A stretch of DNA of 64,000 nucleotides, from positions 42,181 through 106,180 of the IMG/VR virus record IMGVR_UViG_3300027659_000014; one strand, given 5' to 3'. The translations under genes and the position numbers were made by a program. Positions 172 through 55,600 of the stretch are shown here, in pieces. The stretch comes from a virus. The notes below the pieces were generated by a model. It was given only the letters and a program-made list of their open reading frames with translations, had not been told where the DNA came from and did not search any database. The stretch's first letter is position 1. Every line of letters begins with the position of its first letter.

Positions 172-327
172 ATGAAAACTGAAGCAACACAAGTAACCGG
201 ATGTAAAAAATGTGGACAATCGCCAAGTAAAACACAAAAATTTGTTTTTATTACTGGAGCAATAATGTTTTTATTGACAATATATGGTTTAGTTTCTTTA
301 ATATATGATATTAAATCACTATTTTAA
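172..327 (+). CDS. small zinc-knuckle/membrane protein (51 aa)
   Basis: An open frame can be read from 40, but the ATG at 172 follows an A-rich stretch (aaaaagaaag) and gives a sensible protein, so I chose it. The product has a CxxC pair (C11, C14) and a single hydrophobic segment at about residues 24-46, so it is probably a small inner-membrane protein with a cytoplasmic metal-binding tip. No function is recognised. It converges on the DnaJ gene and the two stop codons overlap by 4 bases, with no visible terminator between them. Confidence 0.5.
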   Translation: MKTEATQVTGCKKCGQSPSKTQKFVFITGAIMFLLTIYGLVSLIYDIKSLF

Positions 328-1250
328 CTTCTATTGTATTTAATATATTGATTTATTAATAAATCACCATTATGTTGGTTTTTATACCCTTTTCCTTTAA
401 CTCTTAATGGTGTTGATGTATCAACATTATTTGGGAATTTAACATTTATTTTTCCATCTGGATGTGGAACATCAAATGATCCTCTTTTTAAATCATCAAG
501 ATTTAAAAAAGCACTATATATAAGATTTGTTCCTAATTTTTCAAAGTTACCCTCATTAGTTGTTTTAACTCTAATAACCAAATTACCATATCCCCCGTTT
601 CTATAATCACCAAGTCCTTGTAATCTTAAAAACTGACCATCATCAATTCCATGTGGTAGTTGGATCTCGATTGTTTTAATCTCATTTTTTGTTCCTTGTC
701 CCCCACAAGCATAGCAAGCTGCTGTTGTTATTTTACCAACACCATTACAAGTATTACACGCTACTTGGACTATCTGTATAAACATTCCTGAACCCATTTG
801 TTTTACAACAAATCCTTTTCCATTACAAACATTACATGGTTTTTTCTCTCCCCCATTTCCATTACATGGAGGACATTTATCTTTTCTGTTATATGTTATA
901 CTTTTTTTACCCGCTAAGTATGATTCCAATACACCAATATTTATATCAATTATGGTGTCGTGAACTCTATTTTGTGAATTACGACCACCAAACATATTAT
1001 TCATAATGTCATTCATTGATTGACCTCCAAAACCGTTCATGTTAGAAAATGGGTTATTTCGTTGGTTGTTGTATTGTGATCTTTTATTTTCGTCTCCAAT
1101 AGTATCATATGCAGTTGAGATTTTTTTAAACTTTTCCTCATCCCCACCTTTATCGGGGTGATTTTCTTTAACTAAATTCCTATAAGCTTTTTTAATTTCG
1201 TCTTGAGTTGCACTTTCTGTAACTCCTAACACATTATAATAATCTTCCAT
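324..1250 (-). CDS. dnaJ: type I DnaJ-like co-chaperone
   Basis: 308 aa, shorter than the usual 370 or so. The J domain (residues 1-65) carries HPD at 31-33, the loop needed to stimulate DnaK ATPase. A short Gly/Phe-rich stretch follows (about 66-95), then four CxxCxGxG-type zinc repeats (C126/129, C139/142, C165/168, C179/182) and a substrate-binding beta domain to the end. Known role: delivers unfolded clients to Hsp70. No dnaK is seen in the window, so it presumably works with host DnaK, perhaps in capsid or replisome assembly (inference). A TATATTTG promoter element lies 33 bases upstream of the ATG. The 3' end overlaps the convergent small gene by 4 bases. Confidence 0.93.
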   Translation of the reverse strand: MEDYYNVLGVTESATQDEIKKAYRNLVKENHPDKGGDEEKFKKISTAYDTIGDENKRSQYNNQRNNPFSNMNGFGGQSMNDIMNNMFGGRNSQNRVHDTIIDINIGVLESYLAGKKSITYNRKDKCPPCNGNGGEKKPCNVCNGKGFVVKQMGSGMFIQIVQVACNTCNGVGKITTAACYACGGQGTKNEIKTIEIQLPHGIDDGQFLRLQGLGDYRNGGYGNLVIRVKTTNEGNFEKLGTNLIYSAFLNLDDLKRGSFDVPHPDGKINVKFPNNVDTSTPLRVKGKGYKNQHNGDLLINQYIKYNRS

Positions 1251-3699: not shown

Positions 3700-4914
3700 T
3701 TATTGAGTCTTTTCTTTGTATCCCATTAACGATTTCATTCTGTCAAACTCCTCTTTCAATTTACTTTTACCACCTTTTTTATTTTTTAATGGTATTTCAT
3801 CATATACTGGAGAAGGTACTCTTCCGTATGATTCATCTTTCCATTTTGCCAATTGGTCATCTTCAAAATATTTTGAAAATTTATCGTTAACTCCAGTATT
3901 TTCAGCATTTGCCCATTCTTGGTTGTTACCATTAGTAGAACTTCCTTTTATTTGTTTTTCAATTGTTTCTTTTTTAGGTGGTTTTCCGTCGTAATCAGGA
4001 ATATTCTGTCCCGCAACTTCCACATTAAAGTCAGTTCCTTCATCATCAATTTCATAAGCCATTTTATCCATTTTAGCCAATTGACCGTTACCTTTTGGAA
4101 AATGTTTTGGCTTGGTATTAAATTTCTCTTTAGATCCACTTTTAGTATAATCTAACATTTTTTTAGAAAATTCTTTCATGTAATTTTCATTTTCTTTACC
4201 AGATCCTTTATGTGCTTTTTCATAAGCTTCCAAACCTGCTGGTGTTTTTCCTTTTTTTATATTACTTTTTTCTTTTTCTTCAATAATAATATTTTCTATC
4301 AGATTAATAATCTCGTTCTCTGTAAACAATTCAGACCCATGACCAGAATTTAACCTATATAAAACATTATTATTTTCTTCCAAGGAAGAATTATCAGTAT
4401 ATTCTTTATTACCAAGTTTGAATTTTCCACCTTTTGGTGTTTGTCTTAATTTATTCGTGAATGAATTTCCTTCCGCAGTTTCATCTTCTTCCATGTAAGA
4501 TTTATCACCACACTCCATACATTCACCTTTATTCTCTTTTGTCTCTCTTTTCTTTCTTAAGAGTGTAAAATCTTCTTTATCAATTCTATTATTTTTATTT
4601 TTATCTATATTTTTTTGTTTACCAAATAATCTTTCGGTTATTTCTTCAATATCAGAATCACTTAATTTATTATTATTTCTATAACTCTTACGAGTTTCTA
4701 AAACCTCACTATTTTCTTTATATCCACATGATTCACACGCTTCTCCTTCTCTAATTTCTCCACCGCATGATTCACACATTTCTCCTTCAACATAGTCAAA
4801 TGAAGTTCCAGGTTTATTAAATTTTAATTTTTCCATTACTTCTTTTGCTTTATCCTCTAAAGTTTCATTAAGAATTTTTTTTAATAAAACATTATAATAA
4901 TTGTTATTTTTCAT
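3700..4914 (-). CDS. predicted virion-associated protein with zinc knuckles and an EF-hand-like loop (404 aa)
   Basis: Residues 1-30 form an amphipathic helix (LLKKILNETLEDKAKEV). A four-Cys zinc ribbon follows (C47/C50, C60/C63). D104-D115 fits the 12-residue EF-hand loop pattern (D1, N3, N5, I8, D9, D12), and another CxxC sits at 132-135. The middle is hydrophilic and repetitive, and the C-terminus ends in EEFDRMKSLMGY. Helical peptides of this type (E-x-x-R-M-x-x-L-M-G) recur at the ends of structural proteins of marine Bacteroidota T4-like phages as I know them. I infer a head- or core-associated role. TATTTATA precedes the gene by 13 bases. Confidence 0.75.
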   Translation of the reverse strand: MKNNNYYNVLLKKILNETLEDKAKEVMEKLKFNKPGTSFDYVEGEMCESCGGEIREGEACESCGYKENSEVLETRKSYRNNNKLSDSDIEEITERLFGKQKNIDKNKNNRIDKEDFTLLRKKRETKENKGECMECGDKSYMEEDETAEGNSFTNKLRQTPKGGKFKLGNKEYTDNSSLEENNNVLYRLNSGHGSELFTENEIINLIENIIIEEKEKSNIKKGKTPAGLEAYEKAHKGSGKENENYMKEFSKKMLDYTKSGSKEKFNTKPKHFPKGNGQLAKMDKMAYEIDDEGTDFNVEVAGQNIPDYDGKPPKKETIEKQIKGSSTNGNNQEWANAENTGVNDKFSKYFEDDQLAKWKDESYGRVPSPVYDEIPLKNKKGGKSKLKEEFDRMKSLMGYKEKTQ

Positions 4915-7346: not shown

Positions 7347-7938
7347 TTTTTAAATATTTATTAAAAATTTCAAAATTAAAGGCCGGACTAACATCAGTAA
7401 AATCACTATCAAAATTACTTTTAGTTACAATACCTTCAAATTTTTCTATACCGTTTATTTTTGTATTATGTTCCACACTTTTTAATGGGATATTAGTTTC
7501 TTTGGTTAACTTAACACACAATTTTGAGGTTAAAATAATTTGTTCCTCAGGATATGGTTGCCAAAAAAAATAATCTCTCCATGTTTTATTAAAAACCTTT
7601 TGTTTATAAATATCACCAATCCAATTAATGTGATAATTTTTTAATGGTTCTTTTTCTAACCAACCTAAATTTTCCAAACAAACAATTACAGAGTTTCTGT
7701 TTATAGATGATGTTGTGTTATAATTAGTATATTCATCATTGTCCAATAACTGAAGAACTTTACCATCTCTTGTTACAATATAGTTAGGAATTTTATCATA
7801 TTTACCATTATGTCTATATTTTAATGATTGTAAAAAATCATTTATGTTTCTAGACGTATTAGTGAGTATAATTTGTGTTTTGTTTTTATTTTTTTTCTCT
7901 GATCTAAAATTTCCGTATTTTATTATTTCATCAATCAT
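7339..7938 (-). CDS. amidase_2/T7-lysozyme-fold protein with missing zinc ligands (199 aa)
   Basis: The fold is recognisable against N-acetylmuramoyl-L-alanine amidases: residues 50-62 (IPNYIVTRDGKVL) match the Y-x-I-x-x-D-G strand, residues 80-89 (NRNSVIVCLE) match the NxxSIGV strand, and residues 182-192 match the C-terminal DPGPxFxW-like segment. The zinc ligands are not intact: the first His of the HxT strand is Thr26/Asn27 (LTNTS), His157 may match the second, and Ser184 stands where T7 lysozyme has Cys130. It therefore probably binds rather than cleaves peptidoglycan, or has been repurposed (inference). It is the obvious endolysin-like gene next to spanin-like genes. 8-base overlaps with both neighbours. 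Confidence 0.68.
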   Translation of the reverse strand: MIDEIIKYGNFRSEKKNKNKTQIILTNTSRNINDFLQSLKYRHNGKYDKIPNYIVTRDGKVLQLLDNDEYTNYNTTSSINRNSVIVCLENLGWLEKEPLKNYHINWIGDIYKQKVFNKTWRDYFFWQPYPEEQIILTSKLCVKLTKETNIPLKSVEHNTKINGIEKFEGIVTKSNFDSDFTDVSPAFNFEIFNKYLKND

Positions 7939-9028
7939 TTGTTTTAGTATATCTTAAAACTTTATTTTGTGTGGTTGTATTTACGGTGGTTAGTCCTGTA
8001 CTACCATATTCTATATTTGATAATTCAATAATTTCAGGTTCGACTTGGGGGGTGACTTGGGGGGTATAATGCGTGGTATGATGTGTTAAATAACTTTCAG
8101 GAATCTCAATCTCATCATGTATGGTATCATGTATGGTATCTTCTTTGTGAGGGACACCAGTGTCCCCCTCTAAATTTTCTGTGAATTTTAACAGAGGGAC
8201 ATCCGTGTCCCCCTGTGAATCTTCGTCTTTTCTTTTTCCTTTAAATGCTTGGTTTGTTGCAATAACTAACGTAATTGCTAATGGATCAAAAACAAAGATC
8301 AAAATTAAAATAAAAAGATTTGCGGTTCGTTTAATATCCCAATCAAGTAGTTCACTAACATACTTTAAAGCTCCCAACTCACTTCCCGAAATTTCTTTTG
8401 ATTCCATGTTTAAGATATTAATATCAAGTTGGGTGATACTATCATTCATACTATCAATTCTTTTTGCTATTGTGTCTCTCCTTACTTGTGCTTGTGATAG
8501 TTGAGATTCAAATAATTTTCTATTACCGTCGTTGGCTCTTGTAATTACCTGTCCAGTTCTTCTATCCACAGATTGTGTTGTTGTATTATTAGATACCCCG
8601 TCTCTTAACTTAGTAATGTCTCCGTCTAAAATGTTTTTTTCTTTTGTTAATTCGTCTTTAACTTCTTCAAACCTTTTCTTTTTTACCTCAATATTTTTGA
8701 CTTGTTTTTCGTTAATTTCAAGTTTTGCAATATTCCCTTGAAATCCTGTACTTAAAAGTCCGTATATTCCAAGTGAAGTTATTAAAGAAAGGGTCACAAG
8801 AGCAATGGACATATAAATTTTTAAAATTCCATATGTTTCTTTCCATTTGTCGTGAAGATATGTTGCAATTGCAATTTTAGATATCTCAAGAAATGATCCC
8901 ATAATAATAACGGGTAATGCCACACCAACAAATACGATTGATAAACCAACAACACTATAATATGCTGCGGTTCCTGACAAACCCAAAGCACAAAATAATA
9001 AAAACCAAGGTAAAAATTTTTCTTTCAT
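7931..9028 (-). CDS. multi-pass membrane protein with periplasmic or cytoplasmic coiled coil (365 aa)
   Basis: Hydrophobic helices at about 5-27, 29-50, 68-92 and 235-258 flank a long coiled coil (about 105-225) that contains a conserved-looking TGQVITRANDGNR patch. The C-terminal 100 residues are polar and low-complexity, with short repeats (GDTDVPLL/GDTGVPHK; HDTIHDEI; TPQVTPQV). I know this architecture, with N-terminal SGTAAYYSVVGL-type and ITSLGIYGLLS-type motifs, from large marine phages, where its role is undefined. It heads the operon that carries the amidase-fold gene (8-base ATGATTGA overlap), so a role in membrane disruption or envelope anchoring is possible. Confidence 0.65.
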   Translation of the reverse strand: MKEKFLPWFLLFCALGLSGTAAYYSVVGLSIVFVGVALPVIIMGSFLEISKIAIATYLHDKWKETYGILKIYMSIALVTLSLITSLGIYGLLSTGFQGNIAKLEINEKQVKNIEVKKKRFEEVKDELTKEKNILDGDITKLRDGVSNNTTTQSVDRRTGQVITRANDGNRKLFESQLSQAQVRRDTIAKRIDSMNDSITQLDINILNMESKEISGSELGALKYVSELLDWDIKRTANLFILILIFVFDPLAITLVIATNQAFKGKRKDEDSQGDTDVPLLKFTENLEGDTGVPHKEDTIHDTIHDEIEIPESYLTHHTTHYTPQVTPQVEPEIIELSNIEYGSTGLTTVNTTTQNKVLRYTKTND

Positions 9029-9077
9029 AATAATTCTAATATATTTATAAATACTAATATAAGGTATTTATATAATT

Positions 9078-9497
9078 ATGTCACTACTTAGAGAAACAAT
9101 ACGTAAAGTTTTAATCTTAGAAAAGAAGATTGCTGAGATCCAAGCAAAACTTACTGTTACCATGAATTTAAGATACCAACAGGTAAATGTACCTGGAATG
9201 AAGACCCACGCTGAAATACGAAAAAAAAGAGATTTTTCAAAAAGTGGTGATATAATTAGAGATTATGATATCTTAAATTCAGTAAAAAAAGTAAAGGATG
9301 ATATAGTACAATATATTGTCATTGGTGAGTTATATGATGGTGTTGAGTTTGTAATTAAAGATGAATCAAGCTTACTTAGTATTGCAATTAGAATAGAAGA
9401 AGTTAATCCTTACGAATTTAATCTTTTTATTAAAACCGTTATGAGGGATGCTAATTTTTATGTTGGTAGAAATCAACTAGTTATTACCGCAAAATAA
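9078..9497 (+). CDS. hypothetical protein with amphipathic N-terminal peptide (139 aa)
   Basis: The N-terminus (LLRETIRKVLILEKK) resembles the helical leader peptides of other predicted virion proteins here, including an L-x-E. The rest is a compact alpha/beta domain ending in a strand-rich segment (about 95-139). No family can be named with confidence. It is an isolated plus-strand gene, divergent from 7931-9028 across a 49-base gap with TATTTATA boxes on both strands, and it is followed by a structured non-coding region and a terminator. Confidence 0.6.
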   Translation: MSLLRETIRKVLILEKKIAEIQAKLTVTMNLRYQQVNVPGMKTHAEIRKKRDFSKSGDIIRDYDILNSVKKVKDDIVQYIVIGELYDGVEFVIKDESSLLSIAIRIEEVNPYEFNLFIKTVMRDANFYVGRNQLVITAK

Positions 9498-9520
9498 ACC
9501 CCCACTGGTACCAATGGGGG
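9491..9520 (-). terminator. terminator for the minus-strand transcript
   Basis: On the minus strand an imperfect hairpin with CCCCC/GGGGG arms (9499-9503 and 9516-9520) and a TGGTACCA core is followed by TTTATTTT. It would stop transcription coming from 9631-10077 before it runs into the convergent plus-strand gene. Confidence 0.6.
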
Positions 9521-9626
9521 AGTGTAATTTCATCTTACATCACGAGTAAGATTGAGGATTTTCACCTAGAGAACATCGTGTCTCATTCCGCCGAGTTGTA
9601 AGGGTAATCTCGGTTCAACCCTTTTT
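9521..9626. ncRNA. compact structured RNA region of unknown class
   Basis: This spacer between convergent genes is about 47% G+C by my count, against roughly 30% around it, and has dense complementarity: ATCTTAC (9532-9538) with GTAAGAT (9546-9552), GAG-ACA with TGT-CTC (9569-9584, one bulge), CCGAG (9591-9595) with CTCGG (9609-9613), and AAGGGT (9600-9605) with ACCCTT (9618-9623). The loop CACGA (9541-9545) can pair with TCGTG (9576-9580), a possible kissing interaction. The orientation is not certain. No tRNA cloverleaf fits. Confidence 0.4.
9600..9626 (+). terminator. terminator for the plus-strand transcript
   Basis: AAGGGT (9600-9605) pairs with ACCCTT (9618-9623), leading into TTTTT (9622-9626) on the plus strand. 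This is a plausible intrinsic terminator for 9078-9497, placed beyond the structured region. The stem competes with the CCGAG/CTCGG pairing. Confidence 0.5.
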
Positions 9627-9630
9627 GTAA

Positions 9631-10077
9631 TTAACGATCCTCTATTGTAAATCCTTGAGAATCAACCTCAGGTCCATTATCAATTAACATTTCAACTTTG
9701 ATTTCTCCATCAACAAATCTTGACACAGAACAGAATTCAATTTCAACATCCTCATTAAGATTCATTTTAAACTCGTTATACTGTTCCTCAGTTTCAAATG
9801 ACCCAACTTGACTTGCCGGTGATTGGTAAACTTTTAGACGATACGAACCAAATGGATTTTTAAGTTCAGAAACTTCCATAATAAGATTATCAAACTTATA
9901 ATTATCAGTACCATCTTCGGTTACAAATTTCCCATCATTATCCCTTTTTAATGTTTGAGAATAATGGTACCCACAATTACCACAATTTATATAATCTTCA
10001 CCTGTTTTGTAATAGAAATCGCTAAACGCTTCTTGTTTACAATTTGGACATTCAATATAATCAATTACACTTCCCAT
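9631..10077 (-). CDS. zinc-ribbon protein (148 aa)
   Basis: The N-terminus holds a four-Cys zinc ribbon (C10xxC13 and C32xxC35, in IECPNCKQEA and INCGNCGYHY); the remaining 100 residues form a beta-rich domain with an acidic tail. Related small zinc-ribbon proteins occur in other phages of this type, without a defined role to my knowledge; nucleic-acid binding is a guess from the ribbon. It has its own Bacteroidota-type promoter (10093-10123) and a terminator downstream, so it appears to be a single-gene transcript. Confidence 0.65.
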   Translation of the reverse strand: MGSVIDYIECPNCKQEAFSDFYYKTGEDYINCGNCGYHYSQTLKRDNDGKFVTEDGTDNYKFDNLIMEVSELKNPFGSYRLKVYQSPASQVGSFETEEQYNEFKMNLNEDVEIEFCSVSRFVDGEIKVEMLIDNGPEVDSQGFTIEDR

Positions 10078-10130: not shown

Positions 10131-10931
10131 TTATAAATAGTCAAATAATTCTGAACTATCGTTTCTTAATCTTCTTAACGCCTTTTCTTTTATTTGTCTA
10201 ACTCTTTCTTTTGTTAATCCAAAATCACTCCCAATATCTTCCAAAGTTCTTGGTGTTCCTGTGATCCCAAAATAATCGCCAATAATTGATTTTTCACGAT
10301 CATCTAAATTATTTAATAAATTTAACATTTTTTCTTTTAAAATATCGTTTGTATTAAAAATGGCATCAGGAGCTTCAGCCTCTTGATTAACAATCATATC
10401 AATAAGGGTATCACCGTCTTCATTTATTTTCATGTCTAAATCAACAATAGATGGTAATCCAGTAAACTTATCATCCATTTTATTTCCAGATTGTTCAACT
10501 TCTTTTTTCGCCCTATGTAAATCTTGTACAACATTAACTGGTAATCTTATTGTTCTCGAATTATCATTTAATGATTGTAAAATTGATTGTTTAACCCACC
10601 ATACTGCGTATGAAATAAATCTAAGATCTTTATTCCAATCAAAATTTTTAATTGCTTTCAGTAAACCATGATTACCCTCAGCAATTAGATCTTGTAAATC
10701 TAATCCTTGGTTTTGATATTGTTTTGCAACTGTTATAACAAACCTTAAGTTACCCACAAGTAATTCTTCTTCAATTTGTTTTTTTTCAATTTCAGAAATA
10801 TTATCTGATTTCATTTTTATCGCCAAAGTTTTTTCCCTTTCTGGTGACATAACTTTAATTTTTCTAATATCTTTAAGATAGTAATATACTTCTTCTTGAT
10901 TAATTGGGATTCCTAAATTTTTACTTTTCAT
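10131..10931 (-). CDS. RNA polymerase sigma factor, sigma70 family (RpoD-like)
   Basis: 266 aa. Region 2 is complete (NLRFVITVAKQYQNQGL at 61-77, DLIAEGNHGLLKAI at 81-94, FISYAVWWVKQSILQSL at 105-121), followed by a shortened region 3 and a canonical region 4 helix-turn-helix (TLEDIGSDFGLTKERVRQIK at 229-248). It resembles the primary sigma factor of Bacteroidota more than the minimal T4 gp55. Role: binds host core RNA polymerase and directs it to phage promoters. It lacks region 1.1. A short N-terminal NQEEVYYYLKDIRKIKVMS segment corresponds to region 1.2. The gene starts 6 bases after the stop of 10938-11435, so it is probably cotranscribed with that gene from the promoter at 11459-11491. 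Confidence 0.93.
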   Translation of the reverse strand: MKSKNLGIPINQEEVYYYLKDIRKIKVMSPEREKTLAIKMKSDNISEIEKKQIEEELLVGNLRFVITVAKQYQNQGLDLQDLIAEGNHGLLKAIKNFDWNKDLRFISYAVWWVKQSILQSLNDNSRTIRLPVNVVQDLHRAKKEVEQSGNKMDDKFTGLPSIVDLDMKINEDGDTLIDMIVNQEAEAPDAIFNTNDILKEKMLNLLNNLDDREKSIIGDYFGITGTPRTLEDIGSDFGLTKERVRQIKEKALRRLRNDSSELFDYL

Positions 10932-22163: not shown

Positions 22164-24731
22164 TTATAAATCAAACTTAACTAAGAATTGTTGAATTCCT
22201 TGTCTTAAAACAGGAGATTGTAACTTTGAGACAACTAATACGTCTTTTTTATCATCTAACAACGCTATTTCAGTAATATAAGAATTAGTTCCTGATTTCC
22301 AAGTTGGATTTGATGTTTTTTGAAATTCAGTATAATTTAAATTAATCTTATACATCATTTCATATATTGTTGCTTGTATATCAGTTTCAATACCTCCGTA
22401 GAAATAATATTCATCACCAAAATTTAATTTTGGTCCAACATTACCAATAGGGGTTAAATCAATATATTGGTTTAAATCGTAAAATGGTGCGGAATTATAT
22501 AAGGATTCGGTAACAATAAATGTAGTTCCTGTTAATGAATCTTCAGTAATATAACCATTTATTGTTTGTCCACTTATATTATTAGTAAAATCAATTAATT
22601 TCCATTTTGAGGAATCTGGTCTTGTTCCTGTAGGTACTTTTTGTGCTAACACTTCAAATTTAGTCCCATAAAATCCATTTGGAATATCACATGTAGGACA
22701 TAGTGTTGTAGTTGTTGTAACAATAGGATTAAGTGTTGTAGTTGTTGTAACAATAGGATTAAGTGTTGTAGTTGTTGTAATAATAGGATTAAGTGTTGTA
22801 GTTGTTGTTGTTGGGTTATACCCAGGAACAACCAAACACCCAAATTCACCCGCAAATCTTATTGCAACATTTTTAGATGTATCAGGAAAACAATCATTAT
22901 TATTACCCACAATTTTAACGTAATAATTACAATGTAATGAATTTGTAAATCCATAATCATTACTAATTCTATATGTAATATACATAGTCTCATTGTTTCC
23001 TGTTAATATACCATTAATTGTTGATGAGGTTGTATCACAAATATTTGGAGTTATTAAAGAAACTTGTGGTGCAGGTAATGTCCAATTTCTATTTGATTTA
23101 TAAGATAACGCAGCAACAATTTCTTCATCATCAATAATAATTGTTTGACTATCCGGAAATACTTTACCAATTCGACTTGGTAATCCATTATTATTTGGGT
23201 GTGTATCCCATAAATGATAGTATCTTAATCCAGGATTATTCATATTATTATTTTGGTTTGATTCCATATAATGAACTTCAAATAAGTTTTCATTGTCAAA
23301 TCCAGGTGGGTCAACCCAAAAGGTAGATCCAAAGCAACATTGTGGATTTTTATGCCACATAATCCATGGTATATATAATTTAAAATTTCTAGCTTGACCT
23401 GTTGTATTATTAGTATTAACCGGATCATATGGTTCTAATGCAAATTTTTCACCATAAAAGAAATCAATTGTTTGGTTTGTATAATGAATAATTGCAATTG
23501 TTTTTTGTTCTTCAGGTTCAACCTTAATAACCTCATCAAATGAATTATAATAATAAGTGTCAGTAGTTTCAGCACTTAATACTGAATTTACGTAAAATGT
23601 CTGTCCTAAATTTGAATTATAACCAAAATACTCTTTACTCCCAATATAATTAACAGACCCAAAATAAGTATAATCTTCATATTGTGTTGGTAATAATCCA
23701 GCGGGATTTTCGGTCCAAGGAATATTCATGTTCCAAATTTTAACGTCAAAGTTATCAACATCACATAATGTTTCATAATTAATAACACCATCACCCCAAT
23801 GTGGACTTGGTGTTACACTATCATATAGTTCTGTCATACTTTTAGGATAAACTAAAGCTCTAAAACAACATTTATTATTTATTAATCCAAAATCTGGTGT
23901 TGTTCTATCTAACGTTATTTTATTTTCACAAATTCCAATAATTCTATAAGTTAAAATTGGGTAACAACTATATAATGACATCAAACAAACGGGTTCAGGT
24001 GGTGCGGGACACTGTCTACTTGGTGTTGGCGTTAAACATTCTGTTTTTGTAGGGGTTGGCGTTGGGGTTGGACTTACACAATTAATATGACCACTACTTA
24101 CTGATGGTGTGAGTGTAGGTGTAGGTGTGGTTCCTTGTGATGTTGTTGGTGTTGGTGTTGGTAAATTGGTGCATGAACAATTTTCACATCCTAAACCATC
24201 AAAATAAATAGTAATAAAATCACCAACCTCGTAACCTCCAAATGAAGATGTGTTACATCCTGAATAAATTAAAGTTATTTCATTAGTACCATTTAATGAT
24301 AATGGATTTACCAAATAATTAGAAGTTTTAACATAATTATTACTTGTTAACGCACTCCAATTAATTGTACTTGCGGTTGTGTTACCACTAAAAAATCCCC
24401 TTAAAGGAGCCCGATTAAATACAGACTCAACTGTTGAGTCCATGTATGGGATTCCGTACGTATTTTTCCCAATATTATCCACATAATACGGGTATTTAAC
24501 ATTTTGTTTATTTGATTGTGGTATTCCGTCACTATTTTGACTTCCAAACGGTGGAGTTAAGACAAAACTATTAACTTGATTATAATTAACAGAAACTTTA
24601 TCATAAGAAACTTCACTATCCCCTACCTGAAAATAACTTACATTAAAATTTCCTTGTGACATCTTTAACCTACCAGTATCCGTTATTCTGGTGTTAATAA
24701 GTCCTGATGTATTTTTTATTATATATGACAT
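22164..24731 (-). CDS. large modular tail/fibre protein with Thr-Pro and Thr repeats (855 aa)
   Basis: The N-terminus (YIIKNTSGLINTRITDTGR) and the C-terminus (PVLRQGIQQFLVKFDL) form the two ends of a virion protein type I know from large T4-like phages; between them lie insertions. Residues about 190-245 are T-P repeats with Cys, and residues about 640-680 are four T6-L-N-P-I blocks encoded by a 30-bp tandem repeat (22702-22810). The middle contains a beta-rich, aromatic domain. It is probably a baseplate-attached fibre or adhesin with variable spacer length. TATTTATA lies 6 bases upstream of the ATG. Confidence 0.75.
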   Translation of the reverse strand: MSYIIKNTSGLINTRITDTGRLKMSQGNFNVSYFQVGDSEVSYDKVSVNYNQVNSFVLTPPFGSQNSDGIPQSNKQNVKYPYYVDNIGKNTYGIPYMDSTVESVFNRAPLRGFFSGNTTASTINWSALTSNNYVKTSNYLVNPLSLNGTNEITLIYSGCNTSSFGGYEVGDFITIYFDGLGCENCSCTNLPTPTPTTSQGTTPTPTLTPSVSSGHINCVSPTPTPTPTKTECLTPTPSRQCPAPPEPVCLMSLYSCYPILTYRIIGICENKITLDRTTPDFGLINNKCCFRALVYPKSMTELYDSVTPSPHWGDGVINYETLCDVDNFDVKIWNMNIPWTENPAGLLPTQYEDYTYFGSVNYIGSKEYFGYNSNLGQTFYVNSVLSAETTDTYYYNSFDEVIKVEPEEQKTIAIIHYTNQTIDFFYGEKFALEPYDPVNTNNTTGQARNFKLYIPWIMWHKNPQCCFGSTFWVDPPGFDNENLFEVHYMESNQNNNMNNPGLRYYHLWDTHPNNNGLPSRIGKVFPDSQTIIIDDEEIVAALSYKSNRNWTLPAPQVSLITPNICDTTSSTINGILTGNNETMYITYRISNDYGFTNSLHCNYYVKIVGNNNDCFPDTSKNVAIRFAGEFGCLVVPGYNPTTTTTTLNPIITTTTTLNPIVTTTTTLNPIVTTTTTLCPTCDIPNGFYGTKFEVLAQKVPTGTRPDSSKWKLIDFTNNISGQTINGYITEDSLTGTTFIVTESLYNSAPFYDLNQYIDLTPIGNVGPKLNFGDEYYFYGGIETDIQATIYEMMYKINLNYTEFQKTSNPTWKSGTNSYITEIALLDDKKDVLVVSKLQSPVLRQGIQQFLVKFDL
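22702..22810 (-). repeat. 30-bp tandem repeat, about 3.6 copies
   Basis: Unit AGTGTTGTAGTTGTTGTAAC plus AATAGGATTA, perfect except one C-to-T change in the third copy. It encodes the 10-residue block NPIVTTTTTL in the 855-aa fibre protein. A single version of the same block (NPIVTTTTTF) is found in the next gene upstream. Confidence 0.9.
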
Positions 24732-27888: not shown

Positions 27889-30435
27889 TTACGAATTACA
27901 TCCATATGTTGCCATACAACTATTACAAGTTGTACCAACAGGTAATAATGTACCAACAAATGATGGTGTCCCATTAAATGTATTAACTACTCGATAACAT
28001 TGTCCACCAACTAAAACTATTTGATTAATTACTGCGGATGGTAGTATTACAAACTTTTGAATCAAAGGGTCACAACAAGATACCGCAACATAAACAACTC
28101 CTGGAGTTCTTGTTGGAGTTGGACTTGGGGTTGCTTTTGGTGTTGAAGTTAATGTTTGAGTAGGTGTAGGAGTAGGTGGTGGATTTGTTGAAGTTGGTGT
28201 TTGAGTAGGAGTAGGAGTTGGTGGTGGATTTGTTGACGTTGGTGTTGGTGTTGGTGTAGGAGTAACAACATCACATTCAACACAAGAAATATCATAATTT
28301 ATTATTAAATTAATTATAACTTTTGCATCAGATAATGTATTAAATTTAGTTGGTACACAACTTTTATTAATATCTTTACAATCATTCACAATTGTTATTT
28401 TGTTTTTAACAATATCTATATCAACTTCACCAATATCCGGATAAGTTAATAACATTAATTTTATTACATTAATCCATTCAATATCTGTTGGATAATCATA
28501 AATTCCTATTGAGTTATAAAAAAGAAATTGTTTTATTACACCATTTACACTTGTTTCAATAATAAATTCAGCACCATTAATTACGCACCCTAAATCATTG
28601 TATGTTAAATCAAAAAATCCCTCATTATACATTTGACCTATCCCTCTTCTACCATCAATTCCAGTATTAACAAAATTAGTGTCACTTATATTATAAACTT
28701 GATAATTCCCTAAAAGTGTGGTCCCCGATAAAAGAATTGTTTTACTATATGTACATCCAGAACTATCAACAACTTGTAATGTGTATGTTCCTGCACTTAA
28801 ATTAGTTACTGTTGCTCCAGTTTGTGAGTTTACATTTGAACTCCAATTGTAAGTAAATGGTGGGTAACCACTACTCAAAAGAGTAGTTATTTGACCATCA
28901 TTCCCATTAACAGGTTGTGTTGATAATAAATTAAAGAATACAGAATTTGATGGTCCAACATATGCTGTTGTTATTTGTGAACAACCATTTGCGTCGGTAA
29001 CCGTAACATTATAAGACCCAAAAGGTAAATTATTATAAAAATTAATTGGAGATATTGCGTATCCAGTAATTTGATAAGTATATGGTAATGTACCCCCACT
29101 AGTTGTTAATATCTGTAAGGTACCATTATTTAATCCACATGTGGTATTAGTTGTAACCGCAGTTATTGTAAACAAATTAACATTTGTAACTGTTGTTGTT
29201 CCAGTATAAACACATCCTGAATTATTATCAATCAAAATTGTATATGTGTCTGATTGTAAATTATTAAAAGTTGTGTTAGTACCAACAGTTGTTGTATTAA
29301 CCGTATTTCCGGAAGAATTCAGTAACGTATAGGTAAATGTTCCCGTAGGGGATCCAGTATTAACAACTATTGTTATTGACCCATTATTACCACAATTAGA
29401 ATTTGTTGTGTTAATTGATGAAATAGTAAATCCATTGGGTGTTGTTAACGAAGTTGATTGAGTATCACTACATAATCCAGCATCTTTAACAGTAACGGTT
29501 AAAATTCCTGAAGGTAAATTTTGAAATGTATATGTGTTTGAAAATGTAACTATTGTATCCCCATTAGACCCTGAAAAAAAGAATGGAGCTGTCCCACCAG
29601 TAACGGTAACTTCAACCACACCATCACTATTAAAACAAGTACTTCCTGTTGTTAAAAAAGAAGATATTCCAATTGGTGGAACATTATTAACAGAAACACT
29701 ATTAGGAACAACACATCCTGTAGAATCTGTTACGGTAACAGTATAATACCCAACTGTTAATCCAGTTGCCGTAGACCCTGTTTGTCCATCATTCCAAACA
29801 TATGTATAAGGAGCAACCCCTGTTTGTCCAGTAACAAATATTTTTCCTGAACCAAAAGCAACATTACAACTTGCATCGTCAACAACATAAAACCCATAAG
29901 AAAAAGTTGTTGATGGTAAAATTGGTACGCTCGCACTTACCCCATTACATCCTGCACCATCATCACCAACAATATAATAAGTTCCTCCCGATAAATTTGA
30001 AAAGGTTATTCCACTAGTTGGAGTTGACCCACTATTTATATACCCGTTTGTTGTTTCATAAAGCAATGCAGATCCAAACCCATAAAAAGGATTAAACCCA
30101 AATGTTATTTCTCCATTATCATTACCACAAGTTGTATTTATTACATTTTCAACACTTATAGATGTTCCCGATGATATTGGTATGTTTAAGTATATTGGAT
30201 CAAAGGGTGGATTTATACACGAGTCTTGGATTGCCAAACTATATGTACCGGCAGACATACCACTAAAATAATAAGTTGTTGTGGATGCTGATGTTGGTAA
30301 TAAACCTGTTGAGGAAATTTCATATACAGTGTAGGGTGAAGTACCACCAGTTATCTCAATGTAAATTTCTCCAACATTAGTATTAGTACAATCACCAGAG
30401 ATATAAAGATTATATATTATTTGTCCACAACTCAT
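27889..30435 (-). CDS. SprB-repeat adhesin-like tail protein (848 aa)
   Basis: About seven consecutive modules of 75-90 residues, each with a G-x-I-x-V/T-x-x-x-G-G-T-x-P-Y-x-Y core and an L-x-x-G-x-Y-x-V-x-V-x-D-x-x-G-C end (for example VTGQTGVAPYTYVWNDGQTG and LTVGYYTVTVTDSTGC). These are SprB repeats. After residue 555 comes a domain (about 560-700) and a T-P-S-N-P linker containing a 45-bp tandem repeat, then a Cys-rich C-terminal cap. Its ATG overlaps the previous stop by 4 bases, coupling it to the tail gene 30432-33449. Probable host-binding fibre. Confidence 0.82.
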   Translation of the reverse strand: MSCGQIIYNLYISGDCTNTNVGEIYIEITGGTSPYTVYEISSTGLLPTSASTTTYYFSGMSAGTYSLAIQDSCINPPFDPIYLNIPISSGTSISVENVINTTCGNDNGEITFGFNPFYGFGSALLYETTNGYINSGSTPTSGITFSNLSGGTYYIVGDDGAGCNGVSASVPILPSTTFSYGFYVVDDASCNVAFGSGKIFVTGQTGVAPYTYVWNDGQTGSTATGLTVGYYTVTVTDSTGCVVPNSVSVNNVPPIGISSFLTTGSTCFNSDGVVEVTVTGGTAPFFFSGSNGDTIVTFSNTYTFQNLPSGILTVTVKDAGLCSDTQSTSLTTPNGFTISSINTTNSNCGNNGSITIVVNTGSPTGTFTYTLLNSSGNTVNTTTVGTNTTFNNLQSDTYTILIDNNSGCVYTGTTTVTNVNLFTITAVTTNTTCGLNNGTLQILTTSGGTLPYTYQITGYAISPINFYNNLPFGSYNVTVTDANGCSQITTAYVGPSNSVFFNLLSTQPVNGNDGQITTLLSSGYPPFTYNWSSNVNSQTGATVTNLSAGTYTLQVVDSSGCTYSKTILLSGTTLLGNYQVYNISDTNFVNTGIDGRRGIGQMYNEGFFDLTYNDLGCVINGAEFIIETSVNGVIKQFLFYNSIGIYDYPTDIEWINVIKLMLLTYPDIGEVDIDIVKNKITIVNDCKDINKSCVPTKFNTLSDAKVIINLIINYDISCVECDVVTPTPTPTPTSTNPPPTPTPTQTPTSTNPPPTPTPTQTLTSTPKATPSPTPTRTPGVVYVAVSCCDPLIQKFVILPSAVINQIVLVGGQCYRVVNTFNGTPSFVGTLLPVGTTCNSCMATYGCNS
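28154..28243 (-). repeat. 45-bp tandem repeat, two copies
   Basis: Two near-identical 45-base units (28154-28198 and 28199-28243) encode the 15-residue linker unit TPTQTPTSTNPPPTP within the Thr-Pro spacer of the SprB-repeat protein. Confidence 0.75.
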
Positions 30436-54937: not shown

Positions 54938-55600
54938 TTACATCATTTCATCTTGGTCTTCGTAGTCATTAAAACTACCTTTAATTTCATTTGGGGAAAA
55001 TTCTTCAACATCATTAGTTGTTAAAACATATTCATTTTTTCCAGATTTTTCCATTTCTCCCATTTTGTCATCAAAAAAATCACTTAATTTTTGATTAAAC
55101 GGTCCAGAATCTAAACTTCTTAATTCCAATTTTTCTTCAGGAGTTTTTGGTCTTATTTTTTCAATTTTTGATTCCAAACTATTTACCGTATTAACTAAAT
55201 TATCCATTTCACCTAATTTAGTCTCAAGAGTATTTAATTGATTAAATAAATTATTGAAATATTCTTCTTGTTTGTCAGCAAATGTTTTTTGTGTATCAAT
55301 TAAATCGGTAATATCAAGTTCTTCGGTTTCATTTCCAACTTCTTCCACATCAGGATCATTTTTAATATCAACTGGCTGAGGTGTTGGTTCGGTTGGAGGT
55401 GGAGGAGCAACCTCTCCACCCGGAGGTGGTGGTAATTCTCCACCCGGAGGTGGTGGTAATTCTCCTCCCGGAGGTGGTGGTAATTCTCCACCCGGAAGTG
55501 GAGGTAATTCTCCACCCGGAGGTGTTTCTTGTTCTAAGATATATTTATTGATATTTTTATATCTTCTAATTTCTTCTAATATTTTTTTATCTATTGACAT
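54938..55600 (-). CDS. virion-associated protein with PPGGEL repeats (220 aa)
   Basis: A helical N-terminus (DKKILEEIRRYKNINKYILE) ends in LEQ at residue 24, the same E-x-x-R...L-E-Q type of leader seen in other predicted head proteins here. Then come about five PPGGELPP repeats (25-65), a Pro-rich linker, and a coiled coil (about 110-155) with an acidic tail. It probably projects from or lies inside the virion. The 24-bp repeats at 55413-55524 encode the repeat block. It starts one base after the stop of 55602-55826. Confidence 0.65.
   Translation of the reverse strand: MSIDKKILEEIRRYKNINKYILEQETPPGGELPPLPGGELPPPPGGELPPPPGGELPPPPGGEVAPPPPTEPTPQPVDIKNDPDVEEVGNETEELDITDLIDTQKTFADKQEEYFNNLFNQLNTLETKLGEMDNLVNTVNSLESKIEKIRPKTPEEKLELRSLDSGPFNQKLSDFFDDKMGEMEKSGKNEYVLTTNDVEEFSPNEIKGSFNDYEDQDEMM
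55413..55524 (-). repeat. 24-bp tandem repeat, about 4.6 copies
   Basis: Plus-strand unit TCTCCACCCGGAGGTGGTGG plus TAAT with a few substitutions; G/C-rich in an A/T-rich genome. It encodes the 8-residue block PPGGELPP in the 220-aa protein. Confidence 0.9.

What the first reader, a model, noticed from the sequence alone, without database searches (positions are those of the whole stretch)
9491..9626. Compact structured RNA between convergent genes with a possible kissing loop
A spacer of about 110 bases between 9078-9497 (+) and 9631-10077 (-) is roughly 47% G+C in a genome of about 30%, and contains at least four complementary arm pairs (9532-9538/9546-9552; 9569-9584; 9591-9595/9609-9613; 9600-9605/9618-9623) plus complementary loops CACGA (9541-9545) and TCGTG (9576-9580). 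Only about 55 bases are needed for two ordinary terminators, so the middle looks like an extra, folded RNA element: a phage sRNA, a 3'UTR regulator or an exonuclease-resistant element.
Basis: partly seen in the sequence, partly recalled or inferred. Interest (0 to 1): 0.62.

Follow-up and report, generated by a model that had tools for sequence, protein, structure and literature searches.

The report
Conserved pseudoknotted small RNA of phages
A gap between two genes of an uncultured T4-like phage, probably one that infects Bacteroidota, encodes a small folded RNA of an apparently undescribed family; its knotted core is almost unchanged in more than 90 related virus sequences, so it must do something important, but what it does is not known.

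Summary
The spacer encodes a ~131-nt structured RNA on the MINUS strand (9624→9494), ending in one intrinsic terminator. The same RNA occurs in at least 91 IMG/VR stretches, one copy per contig searched, in four gene contexts. It was not found in GenBank phages, PLSDB plasmids, 85,000 bacterial/archaeal genomes (exact-pattern scans) or Rfam. On 51 distinct sequences 94% of proposed pairs form and 11 pairs show changes on both sides (140 double-change cells against 48 in shuffles). The RNA starts either ≤6 nt after a stop codon with no promoter in sight, or just behind a Bacteroidota-type promoter (p=5e-9). So it is most likely a free small RNA, made from its own promoter or cut from an mRNA 3′ end. 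Its target is unknown; binding a protein is my best inference. A predicted RelE/RegB-fold protein often lies tail-to-tail with it but is not an obligatory partner.

The parts
9494..9624 (-). whole structured RNA as aligned in relatives (5' pseudoknot to terminator U-tract)
   Evidence: 24 distinct close relatives aligned, 51 distinct wider set for the core, models R1 and R2
9600..9623 (-). P1, 5' strand 9623-9618 with 9605-9600; first helix of the pseudoknot
   Evidence: pair col 3/25 switches A-U to U-A in 18 of 51 sequences; inner four pairs invariant
9591..9613 (-). P2, 9613-9609 (CCGAG) with 9595-9591 (CUCGG); crosses P1, so an H-type pseudoknot
   Evidence: present in all 51 distinct sequences, never varies, hence no covariation for or against
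9569..9584 (-). P3 hairpin, loop ACGAn with one bulge
   Evidence: all five pairs show changes on both sides; GAGAC/GUUCUC replaced by GGUGC/GUCACC and others
9555..9567 (-). P4 hairpin GG-UGAAAnU-CC; 7-nt loop resembles a T-loop (my reading)
   Evidence: outer pair covaries A-U/G-U/G-C; in L194/L200 the stem-loop is GGGGC-GGAA-GCCUC
9532..9552 (-). P5 hairpin, variable loop
   Evidence: four pairs with changes on both sides
9490..9520 (-). intrinsic terminator CCCCCAUUGGUACCAGUGGGGG + UUUAUUUU with self-complementary GUAC tetraloop; the U-tract overlaps the end of the opposite-strand gene
   Evidence: scan; five pairs covary; palindromic loop 16/19 against 1/31 control terminators
9631..10077 (-). 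upstream 148-aa gene; its stop codon lies 6 nt before the RNA in this phage
   Evidence: ORF list; spacing table; only a sub-threshold Lar match in Pfam
10131..10931 (-). sigma-70-like factor (regions 2 and 4), usual upstream neighbour of the RNA in relatives
   Evidence: Pfam PF04542/PF04545; neighbourhoods
9078..9497 (+). c10, 139 aa, tail-to-tail with the RNA; predicted RelE/RegB-like fold; accessory
   Evidence: profile family, model and fold comparison, co-occurrence
7931..9028 (-). membrane protein (c1), next gene on the RNA's strand in relatives
   Evidence: neighbourhoods; relatives

Best explanation
It is a free-standing, phage-encoded structured small RNA of about 130-140 nt that acts in trans. 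SHOWN by comparison: the minus-strand fold; the strong selection on its 5' pseudoknot sequence; the single terminator; and two alternative arrangements at the 5' end (abutting a stop codon, or just behind a promoter). INFERRED: where the promoter is present it is a primary transcript of the host's main RNA polymerase. In phages like this one it is released from the 3' end of the upstream mRNA (sigma factor or cargo gene) by trimming or cleavage, and the pseudoknot marks and protects the new 5' end. An invariant core (GGGUUGAACCGAGAUUACCC..ACAACUCGGCGGAA) with exchangeable hairpins around it looks like a binding platform for a protein or RNP rather than an antisense seed. The most likely job is to bind and occupy or steer a host or phage RNA-binding protein or RNase during infection, perhaps as a dimer through the palindromic terminator loop.
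For: At least 91 stretches in IMG/VR, one strong copy per contig, four gene contexts. Covariation: 94.4% of cells paired, 11 pairs and 140 cells with double changes, 0/500 shuffles reach the cell count. G-U pairs, U-tract and promoters all fit the minus strand. Pseudoknot 97% identical against 53% at third codon positions of the sigma gene. 5' ends bimodal: 31 loci with a stop codon <=6 nt upstream and no promoter; 19 of the other 28 with TAnnTTTG, the Bacteroidota promoter box (PMC7366714). No conserved reading frame. Palindromic terminator loop.
Against: No transcript data. P2 of the pseudoknot never varies, so it rests on complementarity alone; RNAalifold offers an alternative pairing of G5-U8 with A96-U99. 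In 31 of 59 distinct loci no promoter of its own is seen, so a cis role there is not excluded. Protein binding is inferred from the conservation pattern only. Dimer formation is inferred, and the most distant members lack the palindromic loop.
Confidence: 0.6

Rival explanations
1. Cis-acting 3'UTR element: pseudoknot plus terminator that stabilises the sigma-factor (or cargo) mRNA against exonucleases and ends transcription.
For: In 31 of 59 distinct loci P1 starts within 6 nt of a stop codon with no promoter seen; the sigma gene is the usual neighbour. A structured 3'UTR domain has a bacterial precedent in the L17 downstream element (PMC2864571).
Against: 19 loci have a promoter directly in front of the RNA, where it would stabilise nothing else; the upstream gene changes freely and can be kilobases of methyltransferase genes; sequence, not just structure, of the core is fixed.
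Confidence: 0.17
2. Counter-defence decoy: the pseudoknot imitates an RNA antitoxin or another RNA ligand and silences a host defence RNase, as the pseudo-ToxI RNA selected in phage TE does.
For: H-type pseudoknot as in ToxI, and a documented phage precedent (PMC5086642); presence varies among close relatives as for accessory counter-defence genes.
Against: Single copy, no tandem repeats; no similarity to any Rfam family down to E = 10; no toxin model among neighbours; no bacterial genome with a similar sequence found. This is a special case of the main explanation.
Confidence: 0.1
3. Riboswitch or attenuator that controls the downstream membrane/lysis genes through its terminator.
For: Conserved compact domain followed by an intrinsic terminator, and in part of the phages the membrane-protein gene follows about 40-70 nt later on the same strand.
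Against: Here and in most relatives the opposite-strand c10 gene lies between; elsewhere the next gene is unrelated; no conserved anti-terminator pairing was seen; Rfam negative.
Confidence: 0.06
4. Self-cleaving ribozyme that frees its own 5' end from the upstream mRNA.
For: Invariant pseudoknot starting just behind the stop codon; P1/P2 order as in the outer helices of HDV-like ribozymes (my comparison).
Against: The inner helices that HDV-like ribozymes need between the pseudoknot strands are absent (3 and about 4 nt); nucleotides at the presumed cleavage end vary; no Rfam ribozyme match; loci with a promoter would not need it.
Confidence: 0.04
5. DNA-level recombination anchor at a gene-exchange hot spot, with no function as RNA.
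For: Cargo genes come and go on both sides; the terminator is a near-perfect DNA palindrome.
Against: Compensatory base changes in P1, P3, P5 and the terminator keep pairing while losing DNA identity; an anchor needs the opposite.
Confidence: 0.02

Closest known systems
Type III antitoxin RNAs (ToxI, CptI) and phage pseudo-ToxI
   Same: H-type pseudoknot; a phage-encoded version that blocks a host RNase is documented (PMC5086642).
   Different: Those antitoxins are tandem repeats of one short pseudoknot next to a toxin gene; here one pseudoknot is fused to three hairpins, in single copy, with no toxin model next to it.
L17 downstream element (RF01708)
   Same: Conserved structured RNA domain in a 3'UTR, which is unusual in bacteria (PMC2864571).
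   Different: Found in Lactobacillales and Listeria with another structure; this RNA changes its upstream gene and often has its own promoter.
manA and wcaG motifs of T4-like cyanophages
   Same: Structured RNAs found in T4-like phages and metagenomes (PMC2864571).
   Different: Those are proposed regulators of adjacent metabolic genes; here the element is a separate unit that ends in its own terminator.
GOLLD, ROOL and OLE RNAs
   Same: Ornate structured RNAs that form homo-oligomers (PMC12286853).
   Different: They are several times larger; oligomer formation here is only suggested by a palindromic loop.
T4 RegB / RelE-superfamily RNases (for the neighbour c10, not for the RNA)
   Same: c10's predicted fold ranks RelE, ParE, HigB and T4 RegB above other chains.
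   Different: Z at most 5.6, no sequence match in Pfam or PDB for the window protein; activity unknown.

Membership tests
Any Rfam 15 family | score at or above the family's gathering threshold | tested here: not met
   no hit in the window or in six divergent loci; with E up to 10 only chance-level hits far below gathering
Type III antitoxin RNA (ToxI/CptI kind) | H-type pseudoknot | tested here: inconclusive
   P1 covaries at one pair; P2 complementary in 51/51 but invariant
Type III antitoxin RNA (ToxI/CptI kind) | tandem repeats of the pseudoknot | tested here: not met
   one strong copy per contig
Type III antitoxin RNA (ToxI/CptI kind) | adjacent ToxN/AbiQ/CptN toxin gene | tested here: not met
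   no such Pfam, PADLOC or NCBIfam match among the neighbours tested
HDV-like self-cleaving ribozyme | nested double pseudoknot with a helix between the P2 5' and P1 3' strands | tested here: not met
   only 3 nt there in all aligned sequences; longer connector between P1 3' and P2 3' strands not found
HDV-like self-cleaving ribozyme | self-cleavage | not testable with these tools
   needs an in-vitro assay
Riboswitch controlling the following gene | lies in the 5'UTR of a same-strand gene in all members | tested here: not met
   opposite-strand c10 follows in this window and in most relatives
Intrinsic terminator | G+C-rich hairpin followed by a U-tract | tested here: met
   9520-9499 minus strand; conserved pairs
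Small RNA gene with a Bacteroidota promoter | TAnnTTTG box just upstream of the RNA | tested here: inconclusive
   present in 19 of 59 distinct loci, 10 of them also with a spaced TTTG box; absent in this window, whose copy follows a stop codon
Small RNA gene | discrete transcript of the predicted size | not testable with these tools
   no transcriptome available
RelE/RegB-fold RNase (neighbour c10) | RelE/RegB fold with catalytic residues and RNase activity | tested here: inconclusive
   model pLDDT 80; top rows RelE/ParE/HigB/RegB at Z 4.6-5.6, below the tool's caution level of 8; conserved H and R; activity untested

The most novel reading that the evidence does not exclude
A new class of phage RNA whose invariant pseudoknot captures or inhibits a specific host factor (a defence RNase, the RNA polymerase or the ribosome), working as a dimer or RNP: a counter-defence or takeover RNA of T4-like phages of Bacteroidota, released either from its own promoter or from the sigma-factor mRNA.
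Probability: 0.25. Interest if true: 0.85.

Novelty: new variant of a known kind. Interest (0 to 1): 0.62.

Why it matters
Well-supported structured RNAs of lytic phages are few, and none was found for T4-like phages of Bacteroidota in Rfam or in the papers searched here. This one has a fold backed by many compensatory changes, a near-invariant core, presence/absence variation among close relatives, and defined ends, so expression, deletion and pull-down tests are straightforward once a phage and host are in culture. The two 5' arrangements offer a natural case of one RNA moving between 3'UTR-derived and promoter-driven expression.

Tried and rejected
tRNA/tmRNA: ARAGORN none. Rfam: none. GenBank phages by DNA: none for the locus, one 23-nt chance hit for the element. 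Plasmids: none. Bacterial/archaeal genomes: two patterns, none; these were exact-pattern scans, so diverged copies would be missed. Nearest relatives in GenBank (Flavobacterium phage immuto, Microcystis phage Mel-JY01, an uncultured 484-kb phage): no credible model hit. A weak model hit in G063 has no pseudoknot and was judged chance. A longer connector between the pseudoknot strands: none found. c10 as an obligatory protein partner: not supported (control 112). L055 is a chance pattern match and was left out.

Full report
WHAT IS THERE.

RELATIVES. Searching with the 148-aa neighbour gave 47 viral loci, ten of which carry the element just behind that gene on the minus strand. Pattern scans raised this to about 33 contigs and, with the 5' pseudoknot alone, to 91 stretches in IMG/VR (87 with a differently relaxed pattern). 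There was no match in GenBank phages, plasmids, or two exact-pattern scans of 84,980 bacterial and archaeal genomes. Covariance models R1 and R2 find one strong copy per contig and none at this site in about half of the loci that share the downstream gene; there a plain terminator or another gene takes its place. The element is therefore accessory.

STRUCTURE. On 24 close sequences 97.3% of proposed pair cells form and 12 pairs show changes on both sides. On 51 distinct sequences spanning divergent phages the figures are 94.4% and 11, with 140 double-change cells against 48±10 in shuffles, and 31-50% paired when partners are slid. P3 covaries at all five pairs, P5 at four, P1 at one, the terminator at five. 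P2 is present in every sequence but never varies; it crosses P1, giving an H-type pseudoknot with short connectors. RNAalifold, which cannot draw pseudoknots, keeps P2 and pairs G5-U8 with A96-U99, so P1 and that pairing may alternate.

STRAND AND ENDS. The U-tract, G-U pairs at varying positions and upstream promoters place the RNA on the minus strand. Its 5' side is bimodal. In 31 of 59 distinct loci the upstream ORF stops within 6 nt of P1 (often the sigma gene, otherwise the 148-aa gene or other genes) and no promoter is seen. In 19 of the remaining 28 a TAnnTTTG box lies 8-35 nt upstream, in 10 of them with a TTTG box at a suitable distance (Fisher 5e-9, not corrected for shared ancestry). 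That box is the Bacteroidota primary promoter (PMC7366714). Either way the pseudoknot is at or near the start of the RNA. This window's copy belongs to the stop-codon class (6 nt).

SELECTION. Across 171 pairs of phages the pseudoknot is 97% identical and the 95-nt core 87%, against 53% at third codon positions and 77% amino-acid identity of the nearby sigma factor. No reading frame is conserved in the core.

TERMINATOR LOOP. The tetraloop is GUAC, GCGC or AUAU, all self-complementary, in 16 of 19 distinct element terminators, against 1 of 31 other tetraloop terminators in the same loci (Fisher 3e-9, same caveat). Three different palindromes argue for maintained self-complementarity. A kissing homodimer is the simplest reading; it is inferred, and distant members (L204, L207, L197) lack it.

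CONTEXT. The phages are distant relatives of T4-like phages: baseplate, helicase, UvsX-like and single-strand binding proteins match PHROGs, and the closest named cultured relative is Flavobacterium phage immuto at 28% baseplate identity. The host is thus only inferred to be Bacteroidota, from this relative and the promoter type. The usual order is sigma factor, optional cargo genes, RNA, optional opposite-strand gene c10, membrane protein, amidase. Three further contexts exist: L194/L200, L204/L220/L222/L240, and L100; in the first two c10 again lies tail-to-tail with the RNA. c10 is predicted to have a RelE/RegB-like fold. But c10 and RNA do not depend on each other: 22 both, 11 RNA only, 11 c10 only, 14 neither among 58 distinct loci (p=0.11), and RNA-bearing contigs up to 292 kb have no c10 (controls 11 of 11 positive). 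Contigs may be incomplete.

INTERPRETATION. The strongest statement is that this is a real, apparently undescribed family of structured phage RNA (my confidence above 0.9). That it works in trans as a free RNA is likely (about 0.6-0.7), because a promoter in front of nothing but the RNA makes little sense for a cis element. What it binds is not known; the conservation pattern suggests a protein or RNP platform. Rivals and their tests are listed in their sections. Literature searches found no description; the library holds open-licence papers only, so this is not proof of novelty.

Noticed in passing
window 9078-9497 (+) and relatives in alignment A4: Unannotated 125-151-aa phage protein family (c10) with conserved H-x3-R, predicted RelE/RegB-like fold: a candidate phage mRNA endonuclease with no Pfam family for most members.
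   Followed up: partly
window 9078-9497, 3700-4914; L100, L204, L220 neighbours: Many proteins of these phages start with an amphipathic helix ending in a '(L/I)xE' motif (e.g. MSLLRETIRKVLILE, LLKKILNETLE), which from my own knowledge resembles capsid-targeting/prohead-protease signals of T4 internal proteins.
   Followed up: no
L095-L114, region between sigma gene and RNA: Hot spot of gene gain and loss: up to four DNA-methyltransferase-like genes in a row, or other cargo, inserted between the sigma gene and the RNA.
   Followed up: partly
window 9029-9080 and upstream of the c1 gene in relatives: TATAAATA-like sequence upstream of the membrane-protein gene, resembling the T4 late promoter box (my own comparison), next to a sigma-70-like phage factor.
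   Followed up: no
window 22702-22808, 28141-28264, 55413-55524: Short tandem repeats of 30, 45 and 24 bp (all multiples of three), in large tail/structural ORFs and in a GGELPPPP-repeat protein.
   Followed up: no
window 324-1250 (-): Phage-encoded DnaJ with J domain, zinc-finger and C-terminal domains.
   Followed up: no
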